Virus record (IMG/VR): IMGVR_UViG_3300009085_000002
Location: 24,966-88,965 of that record
Length of the DNA: 64,000 bases
From: a virus
Direction: 5' to 3' (one strand)
Below, piece after piece: positions 18,801 through 63,831 of the stretch. A program made the translations under genes and the position numbers. The notes beneath the pieces are model-generated. The model was not told the DNA's origin. It was given only the letters and a program-made list of their open reading frames with translations, and did not search any database. The first letter of the stretch is position 1; each line of letters starts with the position of its first letter.

Positions 18801-21800
18801 ATGATTTAAATCTAAGAGATTTTGAATCTATAACTACTTGGGGAGAATATAAGAAATCCTTAATGGAAAATAGAGTATTTGAAGATTTAACTAATGAAGA
18901 AAAAGACTTATATATATCTAATATCCCAGTAAGAATTATTGATGAATATAATAATAAATTAGGATATATACATAGAACTGAATGGAGTGATATAGATAGA
19001 ATTTCAGGAGATGTAGAATTAGATAGAAAAAATAATTTAGAACTAAGAAAATCTGTATATGAAAAGAGTTCATTAAATACAGAAATTACTTATAAATCCT
19101 ATGGTTCTTTAATGAGTGCAGTGGATAATAAAAAAGATTCTTTAAAGAATAGATTTAAAGATCCTAACTTAGTTATATCTGTATGGAATCATGAAACTCA
19201 ATCTTTACAATTGAGTAGAGATAAAAAATATAAAGGACATAAAGATGATATTTTAGTAAATACAACTTTAGTGTCTGGTATTCCTTATGTTATAGCAAAA
19301 ATTCAGAAGAATACTTATATGGGTATACCTGTAACTTCTTCTAAGATAAAAGATTATAACAAAGATTTATCTAATAGCCTATTAAAAGTAGTAGATATAT
19401 GGACAAAATCAAACAGTAAACAACCTTTAATTCCTATAGAACAATCATTAGTAGATCAAATAATGGATATGACTAATAATGATGTTAGAACTTTTAGAGG
19501 ATTTAGAGATTTTATAAAAATCTTTTTGAAAGATTATAATACTAAAGGAAAAGATCTAAAATCTTTTGATAGAAATGATTTAAAAGTATCTGATGCTGAT
19601 GGTATAATTCATTTTACTGGAAACAGTATAGAATTTTTTACAGGTGGCTTAGATAAAGTATTAGAAATAGGGACTAATACTCCTATTAATTCTATAAATA
19701 ATCTTAAACTTATTTTAAAAAACGTAGTAGATAATGCTTATATTAATGTCAATCTTGATTATATGGAAAATAATAATTTCTATGTTCCGTTTATTCAAGA
19801 AAATAAAGTTATAGACTTAAACAATGGTAAATCTTATAAAGATTTTTTAAAAGAAGTTTTGAATACCAATTTATTATCATTTAATATAGGAACTGAAGAG
19901 ACTCCAAATTTTATATATACTACTCAGCAAGTAATAACTTTTGATTCTAAGTTAAATCCTATATCTACCAGAGAAGAAAACAATACAATTACTACTCCTC
20001 AAAGTTTAATAACTAAAAATGTTAATATAGAAAATAAAACTAAAGAAGGATTTAATGAATTCTTTGGTAAATATACTGCAAGTTTAGATGATTTTATAGA
20101 TGAAATGCCTTTAGTAACTAAAGAAGAAGATATAGAAATAGATGATCCTTACATAATGAAAGGATTTAATTTCTATGAACAATCCTTAATTATTAATTCT
20201 AGTCTAGGAACTATATTAGATTTTGTAAAAGCTGCTGATGAACAAAATGCAGGTCTTAAAGTTAATAAAACTTTAGAGTCCTATAAGAAGTCTATAGAAA
20301 GTGTTAGAGATGATTATCAAGAGATTGGTAATAAAAAAATGACAGATTTCTATAATAAATGGTTAAACAATTATGATAAATTTTCTAATATTCTTAAACT
20401 AAAATTCCAAAGATTAAGGGATGTTCATAATAAAGGTTTAATTGGAGATATAGAAGAAATTCTAAATGAAGACTTTGAAGATACAACTACATTAGAAAAA
20501 TCTTTTAATGATGACTTTTATTTAACTTTGAATAAAGCAAATAAGACTACAGCAAGATTTAGATATTTCTTAACTGGAATTAAAAGATTAGATAAGAATG
20601 GTAATCCTCAATTATATGCACCTGGTTTATATAAGACTGTAAATTTTGATGAGGTATTTTCTACCTTACAAAGATTATTATCTAATATAAGATCAAATTA
20701 TAATACTATGTATAATGAATTACTTCAGTATAAAAATAGTATTGATTGGATGCCAGATTTCTTAAAAAAGTTAGATAAATCTTCAGAAAGAACTAAGAAA
20801 GAATTTGCTGTAACAATGGGATCATCATATATTAATATGAAATTTAGTATGTGGTCTCAGCAAGGTAAAGAAAATTATTTTCAAACCTGGGATGCAAATG
20901 CTAATAGTACATCTAAATTTCTACAACAACAATGGAAAGATAATATAGTAGATACTAATTTAATAATATTAGATCCTAAAAGCACAGAGTATAAATTAAA
21001 TGAAAGTATATCTAATAAGTTATTGGAAGATTTTAATAAGTTTAAAGAATCTTTAGTTACTATAGATAATAAAGATATAATAAACTGGTTATCTAATTTA
21101 GGTATTAATGTTTCAGATGGAGTAATAAAGCACATAAGAACTAATAATATAAGAATTCAAACTTCTGAGAGTAATAAAGTAGGAGTTAAATTAAGCTGGG
21201 ATCAACAATTTGAAACTAGTGGAATATTTGGTAATTTAAATGAGAAACTTAAAACTTTATTAAAGCAACAAAAAGATGGAGAAGAAATAAATTTTACAGA
21301 TCTATTTAATGGTAGACCTATAAATACTTTTGCTAGAATAATTGCATCTATAGAAGATATTATATCACCTAATTCTTTTGTTATAGCTAATAAAACATAC
21401 TATCCTTTTAGTTTAACTAAATTCTTAACAGATAGAACTAGAGATATATTAGAAGATAAGATGGTAATAAATGCATTATTAAATAATTCTTATTCTAAAG
21501 ATTCTTTATTACTTAATAGAATGGTATCTAGAGATAAGGGCGGTAATATAGAATTCTTAGATTCTAGTATTAGAAAAGTATTTGATATACAGTATACTTC
21601 TCCAGAAGCTTTAAGAAAGATAAGTGATAAAGAAGGTAGAAAAGATGAAATTAATGAGTTTACTCCACAGGAACTTGAAGCATTTCAAGCTAATCTATTC
21701 TTTGATACCAGATCAAAATTAAATAATGGAAAGGATAGAAAAGTAATAATTACATTACCCCCACTATCTGATAAACATAATTTAATGTTATTAGAAACAA

Positions 21801-29800: not shown

Positions 29801-30666
29801 TATATGATGAAAATGGGAATTTAACTGAAAAAATAGATGAATCTATTATAGACCAGGTTAAAGTTAAAATTGATAAAACTAATAAGATAAATCATGGTAA
29901 CTATGATAGTTTAGATTCTCCATTAATGGCTAAAAAAACTTGGATAGGTAGAGCAGCATTACAATTTAGAGTATGGGCATTAATGGGCTTTTCTAATAGA
30001 TTTAGGAAAGAATATCCTGATTATCAATTAGGTATACAAAGAAAAGGTAGATATAGATCTGTTATAGATATATTTGGTAAGACTAGACCAGAACAATATT
30101 CTATAAATAGGGCAGGTAAATATAAAAATTTACTAGCAACAATGGATGTACTAAAAGTTAATTTACAGTATCTTATAAAGAAGTTAAGCTTTAACAAAAT
30201 ATACTCTGGGTTAACTTTTGAAGATGAAGGATTTACTGAAGTAGACGCTGCAAACATGAGAGCAAATTTAACTGAACTTATTATCTATGCTTCTATGTAT
30301 GGGTTTGGCGCATTAATTTCAGCAATTGCTTATGATGATGAAGATAAAGAAGAAATGAATGCTAGAATTGCAATGGCAAACTTTTTAATGAATTCTTTAT
30401 CTAGAGTTGAATCAGATGTTATGTATTATATATCTCCAGTTCAGATGGAACAATTACAGAAAAATCCTATAGCAGTTGCAGGTCTAGTAGAAGATACTTA
30501 TAAAATAGTAGAAGGATTCCAAAGGTTAATTAATGGAGAAGATATAATTAAATCTGGCCCAGATAAAGATAGAAGTTTCTTATTAAGAGAAACTTTAGAC
30601 TGGTTACCTTTAGGATCTCAAGTAAATAGAACAGTAAAATCTATGCAAGAAAGATTCAATCAATAA
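26878..30666 (+). CDS. Cargo-type virion protein 3, partner of the RNA polymerase
   Basis: The protein has 1262 residues, mostly helical. A charged coiled coil lies at about 120-170 (KRKRAKLRRESKDIQ), a conserved-looking patch near 850 (KVMGWNVKAGIANMGFG), and one hydrophobic helix near 1145 (MYGFGALISAIAY). It follows the giant polymerase gene by two bases and ends the plus-strand block before the terminator. By position it should be an ejected virion protein. I see no polymerase catalytic motif in it. Confidence 0.45.
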   Translation: MICPNFNDKKVKEEFTELVNVLGEKVAYHVWNLNNGYHLDKASNGKDSKLFNDLLKLYKDNRSLAITSKAKYYSSNINSKISKSDVDENNEPILEELKEDNIKDLLPKTLVNDKKFTIVEDKTLLEIRSLKRKRAKLRRESKDIQNRDDINKQILKIDQLIEEKEDDIKNIRSMEAISDLEDIKNRDFKLIDSYLEHSTELDFDDLDYIKNIIKFWQKAGDFTNGRNHIFFDEYDLNKLELVHKFQSWKNNADLYYDKLTDILKAKIELFVNKQFPNANLTTDDIFKITKDIGWFTAQTMDISEINNIMLQATHQAVKIENNRAFNEFKERTEELDKLYDKAKKAGTSLYGNNWKDLFRQEDENGFETGGLTYRISQKFWDNRMEFYKKTRGVSFNKAVQAKLTWRKNNEIFFDPRILFPDLEIYNKQYSEESKTKLEDELKEVLGSDYDKYYNKAKEAIETFKEYRKASFDYIESVGENIENAKEIWNAEHSPYYYMDNIDGEKYQNKYAISAEEFIKAIPQDKNGYYDEKYKKIERNIDIKNYHSFISDILVTLKNIVPPEVSKDIHINSLPILDKGITEEFSANGMQLGIKPFWNKLQDNLAKATRESGLEVGLNIPRNVEGEEIKEVKFNIPMNIKSIVDRKIELEKIKWENENGELPSEEWESLRRKELTDQISKSKSWDLPALIKFYTMAAVTYKHKHLVEDPIKAIKSIIAESKGEVTNRTGIPVQRRDGKTIDNKDLKHLKDQFDYYFQNFLGEPGKSPEGISETKKVYTTEEKQLLEDYNTELKTLEDRYNKGEFNNREDLYVAHKNILEERIKHLGGKRSTGKYGDMILKYYQLKVMGWNVKAGIANMGFGLLSNLVQGAEGRLYTNGSLFKAYNIVFKNSLLGRILPSDSKMKKKVRALMEKFDVLKDASQELFFSRTPSNVSIKLKKLAPYEITKSTEYINQAPIMIAVLMDTKVGDKSLWDLYDENGNLTEKIDESIIDQVKVKIDKTNKINHGNYDSLDSPLMAKKTWIGRAALQFRVWALMGFSNRFRKEYPDYQLGIQRKGRYRSVIDIFGKTRPEQYSINRAGKYKNLLATMDVLKVNLQYLIKKLSFNKIYSGLTFEDEGFTEVDAANMRANLTELIIYASMYGFGALISAIAYDDEDKEEMNARIAMANFLMNSLSRVESDVMYYISPVQMEQLQKNPIAVAGLVEDTYKIVEGFQRLINGEDIIKSGPDKDRSFLLRETLDWLPLGSQVNRTVKSMQERFNQ

Positions 30667-34610: not shown

Positions 34611-35435
34611 TTATTTAGACCAACAATTAGATATTTTAACATCTACAACCACTGGAACTTTTTTTAATATTATTTGTCCTGCTTTTATCATAAGTTCTTG
34701 TAATTTAGCTTTCCATAGCTCTGCTTCACTTTTTAAGCACTCAGTTTGTAATTCATCATATATCTGAAGAATAATTCCAGCATTCCATTCATTATCATCT
34801 ATTTCGTCTTGTATATAAATCATTGCTTGCTTAATAATATCTGCATTAGCGCCTTGTATAGGAGAATTCATAGATGCCCTATTTATACTACCTAACCATT
34901 TATTTTTAGAAGGTGTATTAGGATTATCTTGAATATAATTCCATTTTGGAAATTGTCTTATTCTTCTAAAAGGTTTAGGAGTTCTAATATAACCATAAGT
35001 TTGACCAAATAAACCCCTTTCTTTTAAAAAAGCTTCTACTTTAGGAACTTTAGAAAAGAATTTTTTAATTATCTCTTTTGCTAGATCTACAGATATACTA
35101 GCTGTATTGGATAATTTATATTCGGTCATACCATAGCTCAAGCCAAAGTCGATGGTTTTCTGTAAGTATCTATAAGTAATTGAAGGATTATGAGGATAAG
35201 GCTCATTAACCCTACTAATATCTATATCAAATGTTTCACTACATAATATACTATGAAGATCTTTTCCTTCTTTAAATGTATTAATCCATAGAGGTTCTTC
35301 AGATAATTCAGCTATTATCCTTAGTTCCATATTAGAATAGTCTCCCCCAACAATAACATAATTATCATCCCTTGGTATAAAACAACTTCTAATTATAGTA
35401 CCTAGCTTACCCTTACGTGGTATCTGATTTAAATT
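34611..35435 (-). CDS. polA: DNA polymerase I (family A), exon 2: palm, fingers, motifs A-C
   Basis: This is the C-terminal 274 residues of the polymerase. Joining to exon 1 restores TGRISVSVP-NLNQIP, the same spacing as TGRLSSTDP-NLQNIP in E. coli Pol I. Motif A is GGDYSNMELRIIAEL, motif B is RYLQKTIDFGLSYGMTEYK, and motif C is YDELQTEC, where Tyr replaces the usual His of HDE. An ATG at 35441 could give a separate fragment, but that would lack the exonuclease and thumb parts. The likely product after splicing is 660 residues and replicates the phage genome. Confidence 0.85.
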   Translation of the reverse strand, partial: NLNQIPRKGKLGTIIRSCFIPRDDNYVIVGGDYSNMELRIIAELSEEPLWINTFKEGKDLHSILCSETFDIDISRVNEPYPHNPSITYRYLQKTIDFGLSYGMTEYKLSNTASISVDLAKEIIKKFFSKVPKVEAFLKERGLFGQTYGYIRTPKPFRRIRQFPKWNYIQDNPNTPSKNKWLGSINRASMNSPIQGANADIIKQAMIYIQDEIDDNEWNAGIILQIYDELQTECLKSEAELWKAKLQELMIKAGQIILKKVPVVVDVKISNCWSK

Positions 35436-36256
35436 CACCATTTGTTATGATTTATCATTTCATAACGGTGGACTATATCATCTACTAATAATTTAATTTG
35501 TAATTTTTTTCTTTCTAAACAAAATTCATCATAATCTTCATATAAATCAATAGAGTGTTTCCAAAAATCTGTTCTTGTACTCATCTCTTTACCTAATTTA
35601 TTTTTTACAGGGTTTATACTTAGATCATAATTATACCAATATTTAAAGGCATTCTTTAAATCTTCTACTAAATATGATGAATGAGAATACCACCTAATAA
35701 TAATATTATGCTCCGTATTTCTTATATTACCATCTCCATCTATAAATCCTCTTAAAGCCATTTTAAAACAAGTTTTATTGTAAAATATTGGAAATTTTAC
35801 ATTACTAGTTTTATTTGGAACTCCAACACCTAATGATATTAATAAGTCTACTAAATATTTATTACTTATAGTTAACTTATAAGAGTAATGATTGTCCTTA
35901 GTCTTAAATTTATATACAGGAGTTAATTTATCTTTAGAAAAATATTTTGATAACCTTTCTAATATTTTAGGAGAATCAGTTATAGCTAAAGCTACTCTAC
36001 TATTTTTTAGATCTATGTATCCATCAGATACTATACATCCTATATAATATGCAAATATTGGATTATTTATATCAAATAAATCTTCATTGTAAGTATACTT
36101 TATTTTTGATCTAATATTTGTTAATTTATAATCTTTTATTAGTTTTTCTATATACCATAATCCAACATTTTGTTCTTCTGCTATTTCTCTTTGGGACTTT
36201 CTATTTAAGACCCACTCATCATGTAAAAATTGTTTAGTTATTTTTATTGTATTCAT
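35435..36256 (-). CDS. Intron-encoded LAGLIDADG homing endonuclease
   Basis: The protein has 273 residues. It begins with a helix-turn-helix-like region (about 14-45, with KSQREIAEEQNVGLWYIEKL). Two LAGLIDADG motifs follow: YIGCIVSDGYI (about 71-81) and ALRGFIDGDGN (about 167-177), with acidic residues placed to bind catalytic metal. This is a single-chain homing endonuclease that would cut intronless polA alleles and spread the intron. The gene lies between the two halves of the intron's P7 helix, and its TGA stop straddles the 3' splice site. It has its own promoter-like sequence. Confidence 0.85.
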   Translation of the reverse strand: MNTIKITKQFLHDEWVLNRKSQREIAEEQNVGLWYIEKLIKDYKLTNIRSKIKYTYNEDLFDINNPIFAYYIGCIVSDGYIDLKNSRVALAITDSPKILERLSKYFSKDKLTPVYKFKTKDNHYSYKLTISNKYLVDLLISLGVGVPNKTSNVKFPIFYNKTCFKMALRGFIDGDGNIRNTEHNIIIRWYSHSSYLVEDLKNAFKYWYNYDLSINPVKNKLGKEMSTRTDFWKHSIDLYEDYDEFCLERKKLQIKLLVDDIVHRYEMINHNKW

Positions 36257-36528
36257 AGGAATATTTTATAATATTTCCACAAATATAACAAATTTTATGA
36301 AACATTCAAGTAAAAATTAAAATTATTTTTTTAGTAGTCGGACGCTTTTTCATTAATTTATTATTAATTACTTCCTGTTATTAAGTAGACTTTACTACTC
36401 AGGTAGTCTCTGAACCTTCTAAAAGTGTACTTTTAGCTTGGCTGCTGATTGCCCTTATTATTTGATGGGTTTCCAGCAATTCATCCGATTCATTATAAAA
36501 ATTACTTTTTATACGCCCAATATATCTT
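35436..36528 (-). mobile_element. Group I intron interrupting polA
   Basis: The 1093-base intron runs from after the U at 36529 to a terminal G at 35436. Core elements on the minus strand are: P4 UGCUG (36473-36479 region) with CAGCA (36440-36447); a P6-type hairpin AAAAGU/ACUUUU (36421-36434); P7 GACUA in UUCAGAGACUACC (36404-36408) with UAGUC in GAUAUAGUCC (35471-35475). The last exon bases GUCCCU can pair partly with UUGGGCGU as P1. The first bases of exon 2 (AAU) can pair with AUU just before GGG as P10. Features suit subgroup IA. Splicing keeps the frame. Confidence 0.8.
36280..36310 (-). promoter_or_regulatory. Promoter inside the intron for the homing endonuclease
   Basis: Read on the minus strand: CTTG (36310-36307), 19 bases, then TATATTTG (36287-36280). 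The -7 box is exact and the -33 box is one base off TTTG. Transcription would start near 36273, 17 bases or so before the endonuclease ATG at 36256. This would let the endonuclease be made apart from the polA transcript. Confidence 0.5.
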
Positions 36529-37686
36529 AGGGACACTTACAGAAATCCTACCGGTGCTGAGTATCTGCCATATAGAAGGATGGATTCTCTTGGTAATAGG
36601 GTTTATCTCAGATAGTAAGGAGTCTCCAAAACTTGTATATAATTTATGATATTCATTATATTCTAATAACTCTTTTACTATGGGATATTTATTCTGGATC
36701 TTCCTAAGAGATTCTGATTTAGTATCTTTTAGTGTCTTATCATATTCTTTTAATATACCTAATTTTTGTTCTGGAGAATCCCAATTTATATTAACATTTA
36801 CTTCATGGGTATACATATCTTCTGTTAGAACAATAGGAACTTTCTTATTTCTATTCTTCTTCTTTACAGTTATATATTTTATCTTATCTTTTAATATAAA
36901 AGAATTTAACTTTCTTTTAGACTCTTCTAAAGTTTTCTTAACTTCTGTAATAACTTCTTTTGTATACTTCTCTTTATCTAATCTTATACCTCTATAAAGC
37001 ATTTTAGCAAATACTCTGACTACTTTATTTTCTAGAATTTCAACTTCTCCTGTAGAATAGAATCTTTTATTAAATCTAATTAAAGCTTCTTTCTGCTTAT
37101 TTATTATAGGCTCTAATACTTTAACATCATTTGCAGCATATTCTATTACAGCTTGAGTTAAACCCATATACTGTATATTACCTCTTATAGACTTATCAAG
37201 ATTAAATTTTAGATACTTTTCTGATAATTTACCTAATGAAAACTTTCTAACTACATATTTCTTAGAATCTTCTATTGTAGATTCTTTTGCTATATCTTTT
37301 TCATCTAAATCATTATTATAACCACAATATAAAATATTTTCTTGTAGTTGAGTATCTGATATATTTTTAACATCTGTACTATGATGTAATAGAAACCTTA
37401 AGTCAAATTGGGCATTAGCAAATATGAAAGTTTTATTACTTTCTAAAAGATCTTTATATCTTGATATATTAATACTTGATAAATCTATAACAAATTGATT
37501 ATTCCAATCTCCTAATTGAAGAGTTAACATTTTTTTAGTATAGGGATCAAATCCTTCTGTTTCACTATCTATACCTATAAAAGCATGATTCTTAAAATAA
37601 TTTATAGAATCTTCTATAGAACAATACTGAATTAAGTCTTCATTATATTTACTTAAACTAGTTTGATTAGTTACTAAATATATCAT
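36529..37686 (-). CDS. polA: DNA polymerase I (family A), exon 1: 3'-5' exonuclease and thumb
   Basis: This is the N-terminal 386 residues. The 3'-5' exonuclease domain has Exo I IGIDSETEGFDP (Asp40, Glu42), Exo II FANAQFDLRFLLHH and Exo III IEYAANDVKVLEPI, so proofreading should be intact. A thumb region with many Lys follows, then WQILSTGRISVSVP, where the intron enters. Unspliced message would add a few intron-coded residues and stop at 36502. There is no 5'-3' exonuclease domain; a separate gene at 39379-40284 supplies that. Confidence 0.85.
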
Positions 37687-41448: not shown

Positions 41449-42531
41449 TTATTCAATGTAAGTTATTAATATATTTTTTATAATTTCAAAGAAATCTTTA
41501 TTTTCATAAGTATCCTTAAAATCCATTAATCTATTTAAGGCTTTTATACAATTATATCCTAATTTAGTTGGAGAATTATAAATACTTTCATGAATTAATT
41601 CTAAATTAATATCCAAACTATTTTCTAAAATATCTAAATCAGCGTCTTTTACAGAACCTAAATATTTAAGAGTTTCTTCTATACTATTGTTAGATTTAGT
41701 TACATCTAAATTTAGCCAAGCACTTAAAAAAGAATCTACATTATTGTTAGATATAATTTGATTATTATCCTTTATAGTAGAACTTTTATTAAAGACTTTA
41801 GATAAAGAATTTCTGTAAGTACTATTATGATTATAAGGATATTCAAAATCAGAATATGAGCTTATATTAGCAACAGAAAGTTCTTTTTTCTTATCTTCTA
41901 AAATTTTAATTCTATTCTTTAACCACTCAGGATTTTCTATATTATTATCTATAATAACCTCTAAATCTCCTATTAATAATATATCTTCTTCTTTAGTATT
42001 CTTAAATGGAGTTAATTTACCTAATGTATTTTTAAACCAACATTCTCTAGTTGTTTTAGATTTAGAAGGAACTGCTATTTTTGCACAATATTCATGCGAA
42101 AAATTAACTATTAAGGATACATAATAATTATAATTATAAGCATTAGTCTCTAACTCTGATAAATCTGTATTTGAGAAAAATGTGCTCATATTATGATGAG
42201 AATGTATTAATCCAGTAGACATGCTAATACCTTCTTTATGTATATCATAAGCATTTATTATTTCTCCATTATATTCAAATTCTGTATAAGCATGTGATCC
42301 TATATTCATAGGATATATAAAATCTGCTAGCACTTCTAGATCCTTTAGGTTATCTATATTTCCTTTAGAAATCTTATAGAATAGTATACCAGACCATTCA
42401 GTACTTCCTACTTTGTAATGTAAATAATTTATAATTTTTAGTAAATCTTTAGTTATTCTTAAAACACCTATTTTACCAATAGATACTTTTTTAACTTCTT
42501 TAATTATATTATTTGATATTGTTTCAGACAT
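41449..42531 (-). CDS. JAMM/JAB metalloprotease (deubiquitinase type)
   Basis: The protein has 360 residues. The catalytic JAMM set is complete: Glu45 in TEWSGILF, then His110-Ser-His112, seven residues, Ser120 and Asp123 in HSHHNMSTFFSNTD. These bind zinc and cut isopeptide or peptide bonds at the C-terminus of ubiquitin-like proteins. The C-terminal 180 residues are helical and acidic, with no motif that I recognise; they may bind substrate. The start overlaps the stop of the E2-like gene by one base, and the E1-like gene follows at once. Confidence 0.85.
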   Translation of the reverse strand: MSETISNNIIKEVKKVSIGKIGVLRITKDLLKIINYLHYKVGSTEWSGILFYKISKGNIDNLKDLEVLADFIYPMNIGSHAYTEFEYNGEIINAYDIHKEGISMSTGLIHSHHNMSTFFSNTDLSELETNAYNYNYYVSLIVNFSHEYCAKIAVPSKSKTTRECWFKNTLGKLTPFKNTKEEDILLIGDLEVIIDNNIENPEWLKNRIKILEDKKKELSVANISSYSDFEYPYNHNSTYRNSLSKVFNKSSTIKDNNQIISNNNVDSFLSAWLNLDVTKSNNSIEETLKYLGSVKDADLDILENSLDINLELIHESIYNSPTKLGYNCIKALNRLMDFKDTYENKDFFEIIKNILITYIE

Positions 42532-43724
42532 TATATAGTTATATTTAATTTTTTATTAATAAGATATTCTTCAAAATTAGACTCTATTTTATCTACTACT
42601 TCTCTTAATATAATTCTATGAATTTGTTTAGGATAATTATCTTCTTTCATATTATTAATAATTTTAGAATATATATCTTTTCCATTAAATTCTAAACAAA
42701 GTTTAGGATCATCATTAATAAAATTATTATCAACTATAGGAGTATAAGAAATATTATTTTTTTGTATATAACAATTTTCTGGATATTTATTTGTTAATAT
42801 AGAATCTATTAAATCTATTGATGATTGACTTAACTTTATTGTATAACAATCTTTTACTATTTCAAAAGTATATTTAAAATTATTTATAGTATTAATAATA
42901 TAATTATAATACATATTATTCAAAAGTTTATTATTCTCATCAGTAGAAAGAATACACTGCGAAAGATTATTAGTTTTTAATAAATTACTAATAAACATAT
43001 AAGGACTACCTTCAATACTTTCCCAACTTAAATAAGAAGGTATACTTATTAATATAGAAGAAAAATCACTAAGCCCACCTTTATATATTTTATTTATAGA
43101 TTTCTGTAACTCTGTATTTCCAAAGCACAAACTACTCCATTGTCCTATCTTATTACTACGAGCATGAGAAAATAAATAATTATTTAAATATTCTGCAATA
43201 GATACAGTAGTTCTTGTCATATTAATATTTTCTACTAGCCATTTAGAATTTGTATATCTGAAAGTAAATTTAAAATATATATCATACATAGTATGAGATA
43301 ATTCAATACTATTTGTAATAGTTGTTTCTGGAAAATATAATGTTAAAGTAATAGTACGACTATCATAAATATTTAGCTCATAAGAATCTTTAGAATATAG
43401 TTTGCATACTGTAGCTTCTAAATAATGTGCAAATTTTTCATTATTAAATTTATGTATTTTGTTAAATAATAATTCCTTTAAATATATTTTTATATCTTTA
43501 TAATTTAGAGGTATAAAGGAATCATGAAAATTAAAGTACGACGCCATACAAATATTAGTACTAGTTAAAGTTTTATAGAATATATAATTTTTAAACACAT
43601 ATTCTTTTATTATTATATATGTATTATTAATATCTATAAAATATTTAGCTTGATGAACCGATTTACTTAACTCCTCTTTTAATTCCTTCTCTGATAACTT
43701 TAATAATTCTTCTGGTATTTGCAT
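42531..43724 (-). CDS. Possible E2-like protein of the ubiquitin-like cassette
   Basis: The protein has 397 residues. At about 180-203 the sequence YLNNYLFSHARSNKIG, then WSSLCFGN, resembles the His-x-Gly-x-Cys-x-Gly-Asn surroundings of prokaryotic E2-like domains, with His187 and Cys200 as candidate active residues. Beta strands such as YFKFTFRY precede it, as in the E2 fold. The match is by eye only. The better evidence is position: it lies between the beta-grasp and JAMM genes and is coupled to the latter. Its N- and C-terminal parts are unassigned. If E2 is wrong, it is a cassette-specific protein of unknown role. Confidence 0.45.
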   Translation of the reverse strand: MQIPEELLKLSEKELKEELSKSVHQAKYFIDINNTYIIIKEYVFKNYIFYKTLTSTNICMASYFNFHDSFIPLNYKDIKIYLKELLFNKIHKFNNEKFAHYLEATVCKLYSKDSYELNIYDSRTITLTLYFPETTITNSIELSHTMYDIYFKFTFRYTNSKWLVENINMTRTTVSIAEYLNNYLFSHARSNKIGQWSSLCFGNTELQKSINKIYKGGLSDFSSILISIPSYLSWESIEGSPYMFISNLLKTNNLSQCILSTDENNKLLNNMYYNYIINTINNFKYTFEIVKDCYTIKLSQSSIDLIDSILTNKYPENCYIQKNNISYTPIVDNNFINDDPKLCLEFNGKDIYSKIINNMKEDNYPKQIHRIILREVVDKIESNFEEYLINKKLNITI

Positions 43725-55290: not shown

Positions 55291-55787
55291 ATTAAATATT
55301 TAACTTTTTCTATCAAGTCTCTGAAATTTTCTAGAAATAGATCTCTAAGTTCTTTAGATTGGAAAGATAAACATTTATTTGTTAATGAATAACTCTCTAT
55401 TTCTATTTCATTTCTAGCTTTATTATAACCAATAATATATGTAAGTTTATTATCTATACTAGGAGTCCAATTATCTCTATAGATATCCCTTAAAAATAGT
55501 AGTTGTATAAAAGCCAGTACTTCTTCATATCTTTCTTTAGATATAAGAATATTTTTATTATAAACTTCATCTACTGAACCACTTAAACCTGATATAGAAC
55601 CAATATAACTATTTGTACTTATATAATAAAGATCTTTAGTATACTCAGTATAAGCTTCTTTCCATGTTTTAGGTAATTTATTATTCTTATCTAGTATTTC
55701 TTTATATTTTATACATTTAAAAGTACTATTTTCTTCATCAACTTCATAACCTTCTGGTGGTATGATTTTTAATTCTTTTTCTTGCAT
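55287..55787 (-). CDS. Hypothetical protein, 166 residues
   Basis: A soluble protein that begins MQEKELKIIPPEGYEVDEEN, with a central helix ISKERYEEVLAFIQLLFLRD. The opening with a Pro/Gly-rich charged stretch and KTWKEAYTEY is typical of small phage proteins from Bacteroidetes viruses, but no function is known to me. It follows a terminator. Confidence 0.5.
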   Translation of the reverse strand: MQEKELKIIPPEGYEVDEENSTFKCIKYKEILDKNNKLPKTWKEAYTEYTKDLYYISTNSYIGSISGLSGSVDEVYNKNILISKERYEEVLAFIQLLFLRDIYRDNWTPSIDNKLTYIIGYNKARNEIEIESYSLTNKCLSFQSKELRDLFLENFRDLIEKVKYLI

Positions 55788-55804
55788 ATTTATAATTTTA
55801 ATAA

Positions 55805-55838
55805 AAATACTCTCTAATTATTAAACTAGAGAGTATTT
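55805..55838 (-). terminator. Intrinsic terminator
   Basis: A perfect 12-bp stem (AAATACTCTCTA / TAGAGAGTATTT) with a 10-base loop and a following TTTTAT tract on the minus strand. It lies 11 bases after the stop of the coiled-coil gene. Confidence 0.8.
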
Positions 55839-55848
55839 AAAAATTCAT

Positions 55849-56211
55849 TTATTTTTCCTCTTTTGACAATGAAGACAACTCATCTTCTAAGAATTTAATT
55901 AAATTATTAAAGTTATTAAGCTCTTTTTCAGCTTCAGTAAGCTTATTTTTAGCATTAGTTAAATCCTGGATATATTTATTTCTATCTGAAATAGATTTTC
56001 CATTATTAACTCTGGCTAAAGATAAAGCTTCTTTTGCTTCAATTACTTTATCCTCTTTTCCTATCAAATCTCCTTTCATAGAAGAAATTTGACTAGTTAA
56101 AGCTGAATTAGCTTGTCTCCATACTTTTTGTGCAGTAGCTTCAGCATCATCACCTTTAATAACTGCAATAAACTGTTTTACAAATGAATTCATTACTTTT
56201 GCTGTACTCAT
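55849..56211 (-). CDS. Coiled-coil protein, 120 residues
   Basis: The first 50 residues form a helix (MNSFVKQFIAVIKGDDAEAT, WRQANSALTSQ). Residues 50-118 are a long heptad coiled coil rich in Lys, Glu and Leu. It is followed by its own terminator, which suggests a separately controlled, abundant product. Function unknown. Confidence 0.55.
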   Translation of the reverse strand: MSTAKVMNSFVKQFIAVIKGDDAEATAQKVWRQANSALTSQISSMKGDLIGKEDKVIEAKEALSLARVNNGKSISDRNKYIQDLTNAKNKLTEAEKELNNFNNLIKFLEDELSSLSKEEK

Positions 56212-59566: not shown

Positions 59567-59606
59567 TTCTCCGAAAAGTTTAAATGTTTATAAATAAGAA
59601 AATTAG

Positions 59607-59691
59607 CTCCAATCCTAGGATTTGAACCTAGCCTTTTATTATTTTAAGTACCAGTTTAATTCTAAATACTCAGTATATGAACTTGATTGGA
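59607..59691 (-). tRNA. tRNA-like element, possible degenerate tRNA-Thr(GGT)
   Basis: The 85-base minus-strand sequence has a perfect 7-bp acceptor stem (TCCAATC / GATTGGA), discriminator G, and a perfect T arm (CTAGG TTCAAAT CCTAG). The best anticodon arm is TTAAA-CTGGTAC-TTAAA, with one A-A mismatch, which would give anticodon GGT (Thr). The D region can form only GTTC/GAAT with an unusually long loop and no GG, and 11 bases precede the T stem. It may be a decayed tRNA or a tRNA-like processing signal. Confidence 0.5.
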
Positions 59692-59701
59692 GTATAAGTT
59701 G

Positions 59702-60514: not shown

Positions 60515-60874
60515 TTATTTAATTATTTTTAAAATTTCATACAAACCTTCTTCTAATGCTTCTTCGTAACTATTAAATTTGTATATATTTTGTCCAATTT
60601 CAAAACATCCAGACTCATCTACTTGATTTTCTAAATTAACTCCACATTGTTTTGATATATTTACATCATACATATGATAATCATATTTTCCGTGACAATC
60701 ACAATAAATCGTTAAGAATATATTATGAGCTTCTCTTATCCATTTTTGAAGCAAAGATTGAGTAGGACAATGTAAAATCATTTCTTTACCTTTTCTAGAA
60801 GCAATAACTATCTTATCAAATCCTTTTTCTTTTGCTAATTTAGCTGTTTTAAATGAAATTAATGTTTCGTGCAT
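60515..60874 (-). CDS. Conserved Bacteroidetes phage protein, CPTQSLLQKWIRE type
   Basis: The protein has 119 residues. The middle CPTQSLLQKWIREAHNIFL and the C-terminal FNSYEEALEEGLYEILKII form a signature I associate with small proteins in phages and elements of gut Bacteroidetes. No function is known. It is followed by the lipoprotein gene after seven bases. Confidence 0.6.
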   Translation of the reverse strand: MHETLISFKTAKLAKEKGFDKIVIASRKGKEMILHCPTQSLLQKWIREAHNIFLTIYCDCHGKYDYHMYDVNISKQCGVNLENQVDESGCFEIGQNIYKFNSYEEALEEGLYEILKIIK

Positions 60875-60885
60875 ATTTAAATATT

Positions 60886-61077
60886 TTAATATTCTAAAAT
60901 AATAGGTTTGTTATTAATGACAATAATATATACTACCATCATAATTAATAGTACAAATTCTACAATAAAAGACACTATAAGTCTAAAATCTAGTGATTTT
61001 TGTTTTAAATATATTAAAAAGTCTATAGTTATATTTAGCAAAATTAGAAGACCAGGTATTAATATTAATACTGTCAT
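60886..61077 (-). CDS. Small membrane protein, 63 residues
   Basis: Two predicted membrane helices (about 3-22 and 33-54) with a short basic loop between (KQKSLDFR). It is one base downstream of another small membrane protein gene, and the pair may form a complex. Function unknown. Confidence 0.5.
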   Translation of the reverse strand: MTVLILIPGLLILLNITIDFLIYLKQKSLDFRLIVSFIVEFVLLIMMVVYIIVINNKPIILEY

Positions 61078-61078
61078 A

Positions 61079-61288
61079 TTATTTTCCTTTCCAAATTACT
61101 ATATCTAATACAGATAAAATATCATCTAGAAAAAAAATAAAGCAAACAGGCCCAAGAATACCATATATAGCAAAATTAGCTATTAAACTACCTATTGTTA
61201 GTCTTTTAATTTTTATTATATCTAGTATAAATCCACAAATTACTCCTATAGAATACCATATTATCATGTAAATCAATAAGTTATTCAT
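61079..61288 (-). CDS. Small membrane protein, 69 residues
   Basis: Two or three hydrophobic segments (about 3-22, 32-55) with a cytoplasmic-type KIKR loop between them. It starts just downstream of the second tRNA-like element and is coupled to the next membrane gene. No family recognised. Confidence 0.5.
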   Translation of the reverse strand: MNNLLIYMIIWYSIGVICGFILDIIKIKRLTIGSLIANFAIYGILGPVCFIFFLDDILSVLDIVIWKGK

Positions 61289-61314
61289 ATTTATTTTATT
61301 TTAGTTTAATAAAA

Positions 61315-61414
61315 TAGAGACTATTGGAGTCGAACCAATCTTTTATTCTAGTTGAATATTGTGCATCAAACTATTAAGATTTTATCTATATAGTCATTCT
61401 ACACTATCATCTCT
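61315..61414 (-). tRNA. Second tRNA-like element, abnormal core
   Basis: The 100-base minus-strand sequence has a perfect T arm (ATTGG TTCGACT CCAAT), then AGTCTCT and A, and a partner acceptor AGAGATG with five Watson-Crick pairs, one T-G and one mismatch. The core is too long for a normal tRNA. It includes a hairpin (ATAGT/ACTAT, D-arm-like) and a bulged stem TAGTTTGA/TCAACTA with a 10-base loop. No anticodon is convincing. As in the first element, AATAAAAG precedes the T stem. Confidence 0.4.
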
Positions 61415-61427
61415 ATTTTAGATTATT

Positions 61428-61625
61428 TTATACTTTTATTTCTTTAATTATCTTAGATTCAGGATTAAGATATACTTGAATAAAATCTTCACAAGCTTTT
61501 GCTGAGTGTAACCAGTTACTAACATCTTTCCAATATTTCCACCATAAAAAAGTATGCTGTCTCTGTACTTTATAGGTACTTAGTGTTAAATCAAGTGGCT
61601 TATTTGCTATAATTCTAAATTTCAT
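61428..61625 (-). CDS. Small basic protein, 65 residues
   Basis: It begins MKFRIIANKPLDLTLSTYKV and contains RQHTFLWWKYWKDVSNWLHS, with several Trp. It lies 14 bases from the tRNA-like element and downstream of a gene-free stretch. Function unknown. Confidence 0.5.
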   Translation of the reverse strand: MKFRIIANKPLDLTLSTYKVQRQHTFLWWKYWKDVSNWLHSAKACEDFIQVYLNPESKIIKEIKV

Positions 61626-61649
61626 AGGTATTTATTATTAAGTTTATTA

Positions 61650-62005
61650 AGTTCTTTGTATGCAATTTGAGTAAATGAAGGCTTAGTTGATAGTTAATAA
61701 GTGAAATTGGTATCATGTCTTCTAGTGTCTTAAAGTGGTGACAGATGGCATGACTTAGCAATAACTAATTATTTTCATTTCAACACTCATTATCACTACC
61801 AATATTCACTTATATTATCAAATAGTTTGTAATCTCCTTTTCGTTTAATAAGCTCGTCTATCAATCTTAATTGATTACAGACTTCTAATTAAACTACAAT
61901 AATACTCACTCTTCCAACTTAATGAATTTAATCTATCACCAAATTCTTATGTGTATGGTGTGAGTTTTAGGATACTTTCAATTATAGTTAAACTAGTTTG
62001 ATAAT
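61650..62005. ncRNA. Gene-free stretch with long-range stems, possible structured RNA
   Basis: No open frame of note crosses these 356 bases, and the base composition is less AT-rich than the flanks. Three nested domains are visible. The first is a 16-bp stem with a one-base bulge (61697-61712 with 61797-61813) that encloses TCATG/CATGA. The second pairs TAGTTT-GTAATC (61823-61834) with GATTAC (61873-61878) and AAACTA (61891-61896). The third pairs ACTCAC (61904) with GTGAGT (61960) around CACCA/TGGTG. Strand is unknown. TTGTATGCAA at 61656-61665 recurs at 62510-62519. Confidence 0.4.
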
Positions 62006-62009
62006 GTTT

Positions 62010-62186
62010 TTATCCTGTATTTATATTAGTCCATATTTCTACTTTTTCATCCTCAATTATAGAAACATCATTACTACAAAAATATCCAGTAGCTCCATAA
62101 TGAGCAGTTAAAGTAATATCTAAATCATCTACTAATAGTTTTAATAGATTTACTTTATCTTCAAATGTTAAATTATCAATATTCAT
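62010..62186 (-). CDS. Small acidic protein, 58 residues
   Basis: The ATG at 62186 opens 58 codons ending in TAA. The product begins MNIDNLTFEDKVNLLKLLVD and contains LTAHYGATGYFCSND, a pattern of a folded small domain. Codon use matches the phage genes, unlike the gene-free stretch next to it. Function unknown. Confidence 0.55.
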   Translation of the reverse strand: MNIDNLTFEDKVNLLKLLVDDLDITLTAHYGATGYFCSNDVSIIEDEKVEIWTNINTG

Positions 62187-62217
62187 ATCTCTAATTATTA
62201 ATTAATAATCACTTAAT

Positions 62218-62454
62218 TTAAATTTTTGTTTCAAGACCTTTTAAGACTAAATAACCTATATTACTAGGCTTATATCTTCTTTCATCTCTTATAAATTCTT
62301 TAAATACTACATTAACTAAAGGTTGCCATTGAGAAGACCATACATGCCCATTATTTTGTTCTTTTAAATAATTATATATCTTAATACAATCCTCAGCATC
62401 CTTTTTATAATCTGTTTTTAGCTGCTTTTCTAATCTTAAAAGTAGTTTTCCCAT
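62218..62454 (-). CDS. Hypothetical protein, 78 residues
   Basis: A helical, basic protein starting MGKLLLRLEKQLKTDYKKDA, with NGHVWSSQWQPLVNVVFKEF in the second half. It is downstream of the hairpin at 62474-62508. No family recognised. Confidence 0.5.
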   Translation of the reverse strand: MGKLLLRLEKQLKTDYKKDAEDCIKIYNYLKEQNNGHVWSSQWQPLVNVVFKEFIRDERRYKPSNIGYLVLKGLETKI

Positions 62455-62473
62455 AGTTTTTAATTTTTTTAAA

Positions 62474-62508
62474 AGAAGAGAGGCTCTTAGTTGAGTTTTC
62501 TCTCTTCT
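62474..62508 (-). terminator. Hairpin terminator at the end of the second gene-free stretch
   Basis: AGAAGAGAG / CTCTCTTCT form a 9-bp stem with a 17-base loop, followed on the minus strand by TTTTAAAAAAATT. It may end the transcript of the gene-free stretch, or act as a leader hairpin for the gene starting at 62454. Confidence 0.6.
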
Positions 62509-62509
62509 A

Positions 62510-62985
62510 TTGTATGCAAATTTAAATCAATATTTCCAGGTGTATCAATAATCTGGACTGCACAATTAGTTATAATTCATCTTCTTTATTACTCATAGAG
62601 TGTTTTGTTATAACCATATGATCAAATATTTCTATTTGAAAGGCTAAATAATTTCGATTGGATTAAGCCAATTCTACTTCAACTGCAAATTACATAGCTG
62701 CCAATACAAACAGATAGAGGTCTAATACTTTCAACAAATGTATTTCTTTTCGAGTTGTTACCTTGTTATAATATATTATTACCATATCAATTAAATACTT
62801 CATATTCCTTACTACCAAAGAGTAAGATCCATAATTAATTGACTTAGGCATAAATATGAAAAGAACGATTAATGAAACTAATTTGGCTCTGTTACTACTC
62901 AAGTATACTATTGTAGAATTAGTTTATTCGTGTCTCTACCCATCATTAATTGTTCTAATAATTAATCTAAGGTGTATTATTTTAC
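62510..62985. ncRNA. Second gene-free stretch with 13-bp closing stem, possible structured RNA
   Basis: I see no convincing gene in these 476 bases. Paired elements are: GAACGATTAATGA (62863-62875) with TCATTAATTGTTC (62943-62955), 13 bp with one G-U; inside it AACTAATT (62876) with AATTAGTT (62917); a separate TCAATTAA (62787) / TTAATTGA (62835) stem that encloses CTTACT/AGTAAG; TCAAATA/TATTTGA near 62621; CCAG/CTGG near 62537. Such stems in both gene-free stretches, near tRNA-like elements, suggest a large phage RNA. Strand is unknown. Confidence 0.4.
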
Positions 62986-62988
62986 TTA

Positions 62989-63225
62989 TTATTCTAATAT
63001 AGATTTACTACAAGTTTCTCTCCAGTCAGGCCATGTTTCTCTACATTCTGGTTGATAATTTTCAAGAGTATTACCTCTAAATCCATTATTATATGCATTA
63101 GCAACCAATTTATCTGCTTCTGATTTCTTTTGAACATGATAAATTTGCCAAATCATTCCACCCTTATGGTTACGAATCATTAAAGTTTTAGGATACTTAT
63201 TATTCTTTGTTAGGTCTGTATACAT
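62989..63225 (-). CDS. Hypothetical protein, 78 residues
   Basis: It begins MYTDLTKNNKYPKTLMIRNH and contains KKSEADKLVANAYNNGFRGN and a Cys/Trp-rich end (PECRETWPDWRETC). Small proteins of this sort are found in Bacteroidetes phages, but no function is known. It is the first gene upstream of the second gene-free stretch. Confidence 0.5.
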   Translation of the reverse strand: MYTDLTKNNKYPKTLMIRNHKGGMIWQIYHVQKKSEADKLVANAYNNGFRGNTLENYQPECRETWPDWRETCSKSILE

Positions 63226-63444: not shown

Positions 63445-63831
63445 TTAATCTGAAAAATCTTTTATAATTTCCAAATATTTTAGTTTATTTGATGCTAAAG
63501 ATTTATAACTCTCACCCCTAAAATTAAATGACCCCTCATAATATTTAGATCCTTTAGGTATTACACATTTTACTAATGTAACTAATTTATCTTTAGCCAT
63601 ATAACAAGCATCTTTTTTATACTTCATTGAGTGTAATCCTTCATTAATAAGGCCTTTAGTAAATAGTAGTTGTATTTTTATAAGTTTGGATCTATAAGTT
63701 TTACCTATTTTTATTATCTTATGTCGGTAATAAGTTAAATAAGCTTGATTAACTTTTATTATATACTTATAAACCACTATATCTTTTTTTGCAATTAGGG
63801 GTTCTTTTGTTGTCAAATTCTCTAAGCACAT
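63445..63831 (-). CDS. Conserved phage protein, 128 residues
   Basis: It begins MCLENLTTKEPLIAKKDIVVYK and contains NEGLHSMKYKKDACYMA, then KCVIPKGSKYYEGSFNFRGE and SYKSLASNKLKYLEII. The order (AKKDIVVYK, EGxHS, CxIPKGSxYY, SyxSxxLxy) is a small-protein pattern I have seen in Bacteroidetes phages. No enzyme motif is visible. Confidence 0.55.
   Translation of the reverse strand: MCLENLTTKEPLIAKKDIVVYKYIIKVNQAYLTYYRHKIIKIGKTYRSKLIKIQLLFTKGLINEGLHSMKYKKDACYMAKDKLVTLVKCVIPKGSKYYEGSFNFRGESYKSLASNKLKYLEIIKDFSD

What the first reader, a model, noticed from the sequence alone, without database searches (positions are those of the whole stretch)
61650..62005. Structured gene-free stretch with a 16-bp long-range stem
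In a genome where genes overlap or abut, 356 bases without a gene is exceptional. Three domains closed by complementary arms are visible. Together with tRNA-like elements nearby this recalls large phage RNAs such as GOLLD and ROOL, which lie near tRNA genes, although I cannot show homology.
Basis: partly seen in the sequence, partly recalled or inferred. Interest (0 to 1): 0.75.

Follow-up and report, generated by a model that had tools for sequence, protein, structure and literature searches.

The report
Orphan gene-free stretch, partly structured
A 384-base stretch without genes in an uncultured crAss-like phage can fold into at least one well-formed RNA hairpin domain and may encode a small structured RNA, but no relative was found, so neither the RNA nor its function is proven, and it matches neither of the known giant phage RNAs GOLLD and ROOL.

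Summary
The window is the last 64 kb of a complete-looking, 26% GC, crAss-like phage record (88,965 bp, 123-bp end repeat). The gene-free stretch is real: 61626-62009, 384 nt, no ORF of 50 aa or more, many stops in all six frames. It is the longest gap in the window but not in the genome, where three gaps are longer. The 16-bp stem is real (61797-61813 with 61697-61712) and stays paired at about 0.7-0.97 probability in every context tried. A second stem closes an abutting domain (61990-62005 with 61814-61828), but it dissolves when flanking sequence is added. An 11-bp loop-to-loop helix is possible. The number of long stems exceeds shuffles (P about 0.003-0.005, uncorrected), yet overall stability is ordinary: z about -2, rank 333 of 2,300 genome tiles. 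Nothing matches Rfam, so GOLLD and ROOL are not supported. BLASTN, covariance models and k-mer scans found no relative in IMG/VR, INPHARED or about 100 crAss-like records, so covariation could not be tested. Stem-closed gaps are enriched in related phages, hinting at a clade habit. Best reading: a lineage-specific structured RNA in a leftward operon (0.4); rivals are a cis-acting hairpin or plain spacer.

The parts
61626..62009 (.). ORF-free stretch (record 86591-86974)
61697..61813 (-). Domain B, closed by the 16-bp stem (9+7 bp, one bulge)
   Evidence: pair probability 0.68-0.97 in all contexts tried
61797..61813 (-). 5' arm of the domain B closing stem
61697..61712 (-). 3' arm of the domain B closing stem
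61814..62005 (-). Domain A, closed by a 9+6-bp stem (5' arm 61990-62005, 3' arm 61814-61828); abuts domain B; weak
   Evidence: outer stem lost when flanks are added
61931..61941 (-). 5' partner of a possible 11-bp loop-loop helix (UGGUGAUAGAU), in a hairpin loop of domain A
61736..61746 (-). 3' partner of the loop-loop helix (AUCUGUCACCA), in domain B
62010..62186 (-). Upstream flanking ORF, 58 aa, no family match
61428..61625 (-). Downstream flanking ORF, 65 aa, no family match

Best explanation
A lineage-specific structured noncoding RNA, made as part of a leftward (minus-strand) transcript that also carries small accessory genes. Domain B, and perhaps domain A, fold as abutting stem-closed domains that could touch through an 11-bp loop-loop helix. 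The folded block would be cut out of the transcript, or shielded from decay, by its long stems and would act as a stand-alone small RNA during infection. Shown: absence of genes, presence of the stems, direction of both flanking ORFs. Inferred: that the stretch is transcribed, which strand is the RNA, processing, and any target.
For: No coding potential in six frames or under two recodings. Stem count above shuffles, P about 0.003-0.005, and an abutting closed pair in 3 of 600 shuffles. Domain B stem robust to context. Domain A's closing stem starts four bases after the upstream stop codon and ends one base before domain B (sequence). Stem-closed gaps are enriched in 18 related genomes against shuffles and coding DNA, and some fold into multi-arm junctions.
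Against: Overall energy is ordinary for this genome. Domain A is not robust. Folding does not separate the strands. No promoter or terminator of its own was recognised. No homologue, hence no covariation.
Confidence: 0.4

Rival explanations
1. A cis-acting intercistronic element of the leftward mRNA: the domain B hairpin separates the 58-aa and 65-aa genes and sets an RNase cut or blocks 3'-5' decay, so that the two genes are expressed at different levels. No separate RNA product matters.
For: Lies between two genes of the same strand; only one hairpin domain is robust; intergenic hairpins are common in this genome's accessory region.
Against: 384 nt is long for an intercistronic hairpin; about 70 nt without a clear fold follow domain B before the next gene.
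Confidence: 0.3
2. Ordinary spacer or decayed accessory DNA with chance complementarity in a 26% GC sequence.
For: Rank 333 of 2,300 tiles for folding energy; z only about -2; longer gaps elsewhere in the record; no relative conserves it.
Against: Stem count P about 0.003-0.005; the domain B stem is among the strongest long stems in this genome's gaps; phage genomes rarely keep 384 idle bases (general knowledge).
Confidence: 0.25
3. A divergent member of a known RNA class (GOLLD, ROOL, a self-splicing intron, tmRNA).
For: Size and gap context; group I introns do occur in related phages (L101 4638-4990, L150 14593-14839).
Against: No Rfam match at gathering score in the window nor to any of these families at E<=10 in 61000-63000; ARAGORN negative; both flanking ORFs have their own start and stop, so there is no sign of exons to join.
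Confidence: 0.05

Closest known systems
GOLLD RNA
   Same: Gene-free, structured, in a phage, possible kissing loops
   Different: No Rfam match; 384 nt against 800+ nt for many members; no tRNA array
ROOL RNA
   Same: Gene-free, structured, in a phage, possible loop-loop contact
   Different: No Rfam match; shorter than the roughly 580 nt I recall; no tRNA island
Stem-closed gap elements of related crAss-like phages (G003 42394-42730, G012 30036-30140, G013 55775-56089, G026 88734-88875, G044 18864-19010)
   Same: ORF-free, 11-15-bp closing stems around about 50-140 nt, sometimes in tandem, sometimes beside tRNA-like sequence
   Different: No sequence homology to this stretch shown; unnamed and unproven themselves

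Membership tests
GOLLD | Match to the Rfam covariance model | tested here: not met
GOLLD | Length, many members above 800 nt, with a conserved 3' region | tested here: not met
   384 nt stretch; length from PMC12286853; the 3' region was tested only through the Rfam search
GOLLD / ROOL | Often near tRNA islands | tested here: not met
   No tRNA called in the window or record; one tRNA-like fold at 61310-61420
ROOL | Match to the Rfam covariance model | tested here: not met
GOLLD / ROOL | Homo-oligomeric RNA cage | not testable with these tools
   Needs cryo-EM or light scattering
Self-splicing group I or II intron | Rfam match and exons of one gene on both sides | tested here: not met
   both flanking ORFs have start and stop
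Structured noncoding RNA (general) | Covariation in stems among homologues | not testable with these tools
   No homologue found
Structured noncoding RNA (general) | Folding energy clearly below background | tested here: inconclusive
   z about -2; rank 333 of 2,300 tiles

The most novel reading that the evidence does not exclude
The stretch is one example of an unnamed set of stem-closed structured RNAs (closing stems of about 11-16 bp around 50-260 nt, sometimes in tandem, sometimes near tRNA-like elements) that crAss-like phages of this branch carry in gene-free gaps and that Rfam does not list.
Probability: 0.2. Interest if true: 0.6.

Novelty: new member of a known kind. Interest (0 to 1): 0.3.

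Why it matters
If the recurrent stem-closed gaps are real RNAs, an abundant phage group carries an undescribed layer of noncoding RNA. For this stretch alone the practical message is caution: long complementary arms are easy to see in 26% GC DNA, and here only one closed domain survives folding in context.

Tried and rejected
GOLLD, ROOL and other Rfam families. Recoded or decayed gene. BLASTN relatives in INPHARED (only short chance-level matches) and in 50 crAss-like records (14-46-nt chance-level matches). IMG/VR scans with regional proteins (65, 842 and 372 aa; none) and with an exact 18-mer and 23-mer of the stretch (one hit, inside a coding gene of an unrelated contig; none). Single-sequence covariance models of domains A and B over 1.46 Mb of relatives and of domain A over 83 further records: nothing, but a one-sequence model has little reach. 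Homology of domain A to a closed element of the syntenic phage G044 looked possible (2 of 200 shuffles) but was not supported by its rank within that genome or by the model. Per-tile shuffles timed out and were replaced by a regression of tile energies on base composition. First-pass stem scoring that allowed many mismatches was not discriminating and was replaced by stricter scoring.

Full report
What the window is. The window is bases 24,966-88,965 of an 88,965-bp virus record with a 123-bp direct end repeat, so the genome is probably complete. It is crAss-like: its giant protein with the RNA polymerase motif GSDFDVDK and its helicase match crAss-like and Flavobacterium phages at about 24-33% identity over long stretches. 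The best IMG/VR relatives reach only about 35-39% in the polymerase region and 30-35% in a second conserved protein, probably the capsid protein. The lineage is therefore isolated in the collections I could search. The phage carries clear Bacteroidota-type promoters (TTTG-N20-TAnnTTTG).

The stretch. 61626-62009 lies between a 58-aa ORF (62010-62186) and a 65-aa ORF (61428-61625), both on the minus strand. It is the longest ORF-free gap in the window, but the whole record has three longer ones (507, 394 and 387 nt), and related phages have gaps up to 834 nt. All six frames carry 12-15 stops, more than the 9.6 expected from shuffles, and reading TAG or TGA as sense opens nothing convincing. It does not look like a gene or a recently decayed one.

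The stems. A second stem, 61990-62005 with 61814-61828, closes a domain that abuts the first without a spare base. A third, 11-bp complementarity joins 61931-61941 (in a hairpin loop of domain A) to 61736-61746 (in domain B). Against 600 dinucleotide shuffles of the stretch, three stems at or below -16 kcal/mol are more than expected (0.29; P=0.005), and an abutting pair of closed stems at or below -15 appears in 3 of 600.

Limits of the structure. The minimum free energy is only two to two and a half standard deviations below shuffles on either strand. Among 2,300 tiles of the genome corrected for base composition, the stretch ranks 333rd on the minus strand and 260th on the plus strand. Domain B keeps its stem at 0.68-0.97 mean probability in all contexts tried. 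The outer part of domain A's stem falls from 0.53 to 0.07 and then to zero as flanking sequence is added (the inner-arm figures of that call picked wrong copies of a 6-mer and are not used). Folding does not tell the strands apart; minus is preferred because both flanking ORFs are on the minus strand.

Known families. Rfam 15 gives no match at gathering score in the window and no relevant match at E<=10 around the stretch. The same tool finds group I introns and tRNAs in related phages, so the search works on this kind of DNA. ARAGORN without introns and the Rfam tRNA model find no tRNA in the window or the record; ARAGORN with introns allowed gives many implausible calls. Many GOLLD members exceed 800 nt and lie near tRNA islands (PMC12286853); neither holds here.

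Relatives. BLASTN in 50,697 phage records, BLASTN in 50 crAss-like records, two exact k-mer scans of IMG/VR and covariance models over relatives found nothing beyond chance. Covariation is therefore untested, not absent. Records very near this genome may be left out of the collections.

Neighbourhood. One related phage, G044, is partly syntenic here. It has a homologue, interrupted by frame breaks, of the 128-aa protein at 63445-63831 (PHROG 13450), a 34-nt motif with 32 of 34 bases identical to 62655-62688, and a homologue of the 119-aa protein at 60515-60874 (PHROG 12005). Between them it too has a gene-free gap with a terminator-like hairpin, a tRNA-like element and a closed element. I tested that closed element as a homologue of domain A and could not support it.

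A clade habit. Across 18 genomes, ORF-free gaps hold more long stems enclosing 50-260 nt than shuffles or coding DNA do: 11.5 per strand against 3.7 and 3.5 at -22 kcal/mol with one bulge or mismatch allowed, and 7 against 0.5 shuffled for perfect stems. Tandem closed stems at -16 kcal/mol or better were 7 gap-strands against 0 shuffled, though at -14 the counts were alike (22 against 20). Some examples in G003, G012 and G026 fold into junctions with several arms. They share no detectable sequence with this stretch. This makes a structured RNA here more plausible but proves nothing about it.

Verdict. A real gene-free stretch, one real long stem, weak overall structure, no relatives, and no support for GOLLD or ROOL. 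Most likely a lineage-specific structured RNA in a leftward operon (0.4), then a cis-acting intercistronic hairpin (0.3), then spacer (0.25).

Noticed in passing
window 61310-61420 (-): tRNA-like fold: 12-bp closing stem and a canonical T-arm (AUUGG-UUCGACU-CCAAU), z -4.0, not called as tRNA by ARAGORN or Rfam.
   Followed up: partly
window 59606-59693 (-): Second tRNA-like element: 7-9-bp acceptor-like stem and T-arm CUAGG-UUCAAAU-CCUAG, not called as tRNA.
   Followed up: no
window 62655-62688 (-): 34-nt motif TGCAGTTGAAGTAGAATTGGCTTAATCCAATCGA shared with distant phage G044 (L160 16900-16933, 32 of 34 identical) inside non-coding DNA; not found in bacterial genomes or in other relatives above chance.
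   Followed up: partly
L096 9920-10426 (same record, left of the window): 507-nt gene-free unit with its own Bacteroidota-type promoter and a hairpin followed by a T run at its end; no Rfam match. A better noncoding RNA candidate than the finding itself by transcription signals, though its fold is ordinary (z -1.4).
   Followed up: partly
L096 4273-4381: Perfect 12-bp stem (ACTGGAGGATAT/ATATCCTCCAGT) around an 85-nt A-rich loop in a gap.
   Followed up: no
window 34611-37686: DNA polymerase gene split by a homing endonuclease-like ORF (35435-36256) and a 192-nt gap (36257-36448), which looks like an intron.
   Followed up: no
L096 11739-15107: The terminase-like protein appears to carry an intein (insert starting ...GGGKCLKN and ending ...HNSYDG).
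   Followed up: no
L100 10482-10704: In phage G003, a tRNA gene whose halves are separated by about 134 nt of structured insert, called only when introns are allowed.
   Followed up: no
L109 2389-2715 and 3571-3891: Two paralogous gaps in phage G002 (68% identical over 235 nt) that look like group I introns by recalled core sequence.
   Followed up: no
L255 330-1130 and 1680-2050: In syntenic phage G044, two long gene-free stretches (about 800 and 370 nt), the second with a 12-bp closing stem.
   Followed up: partly
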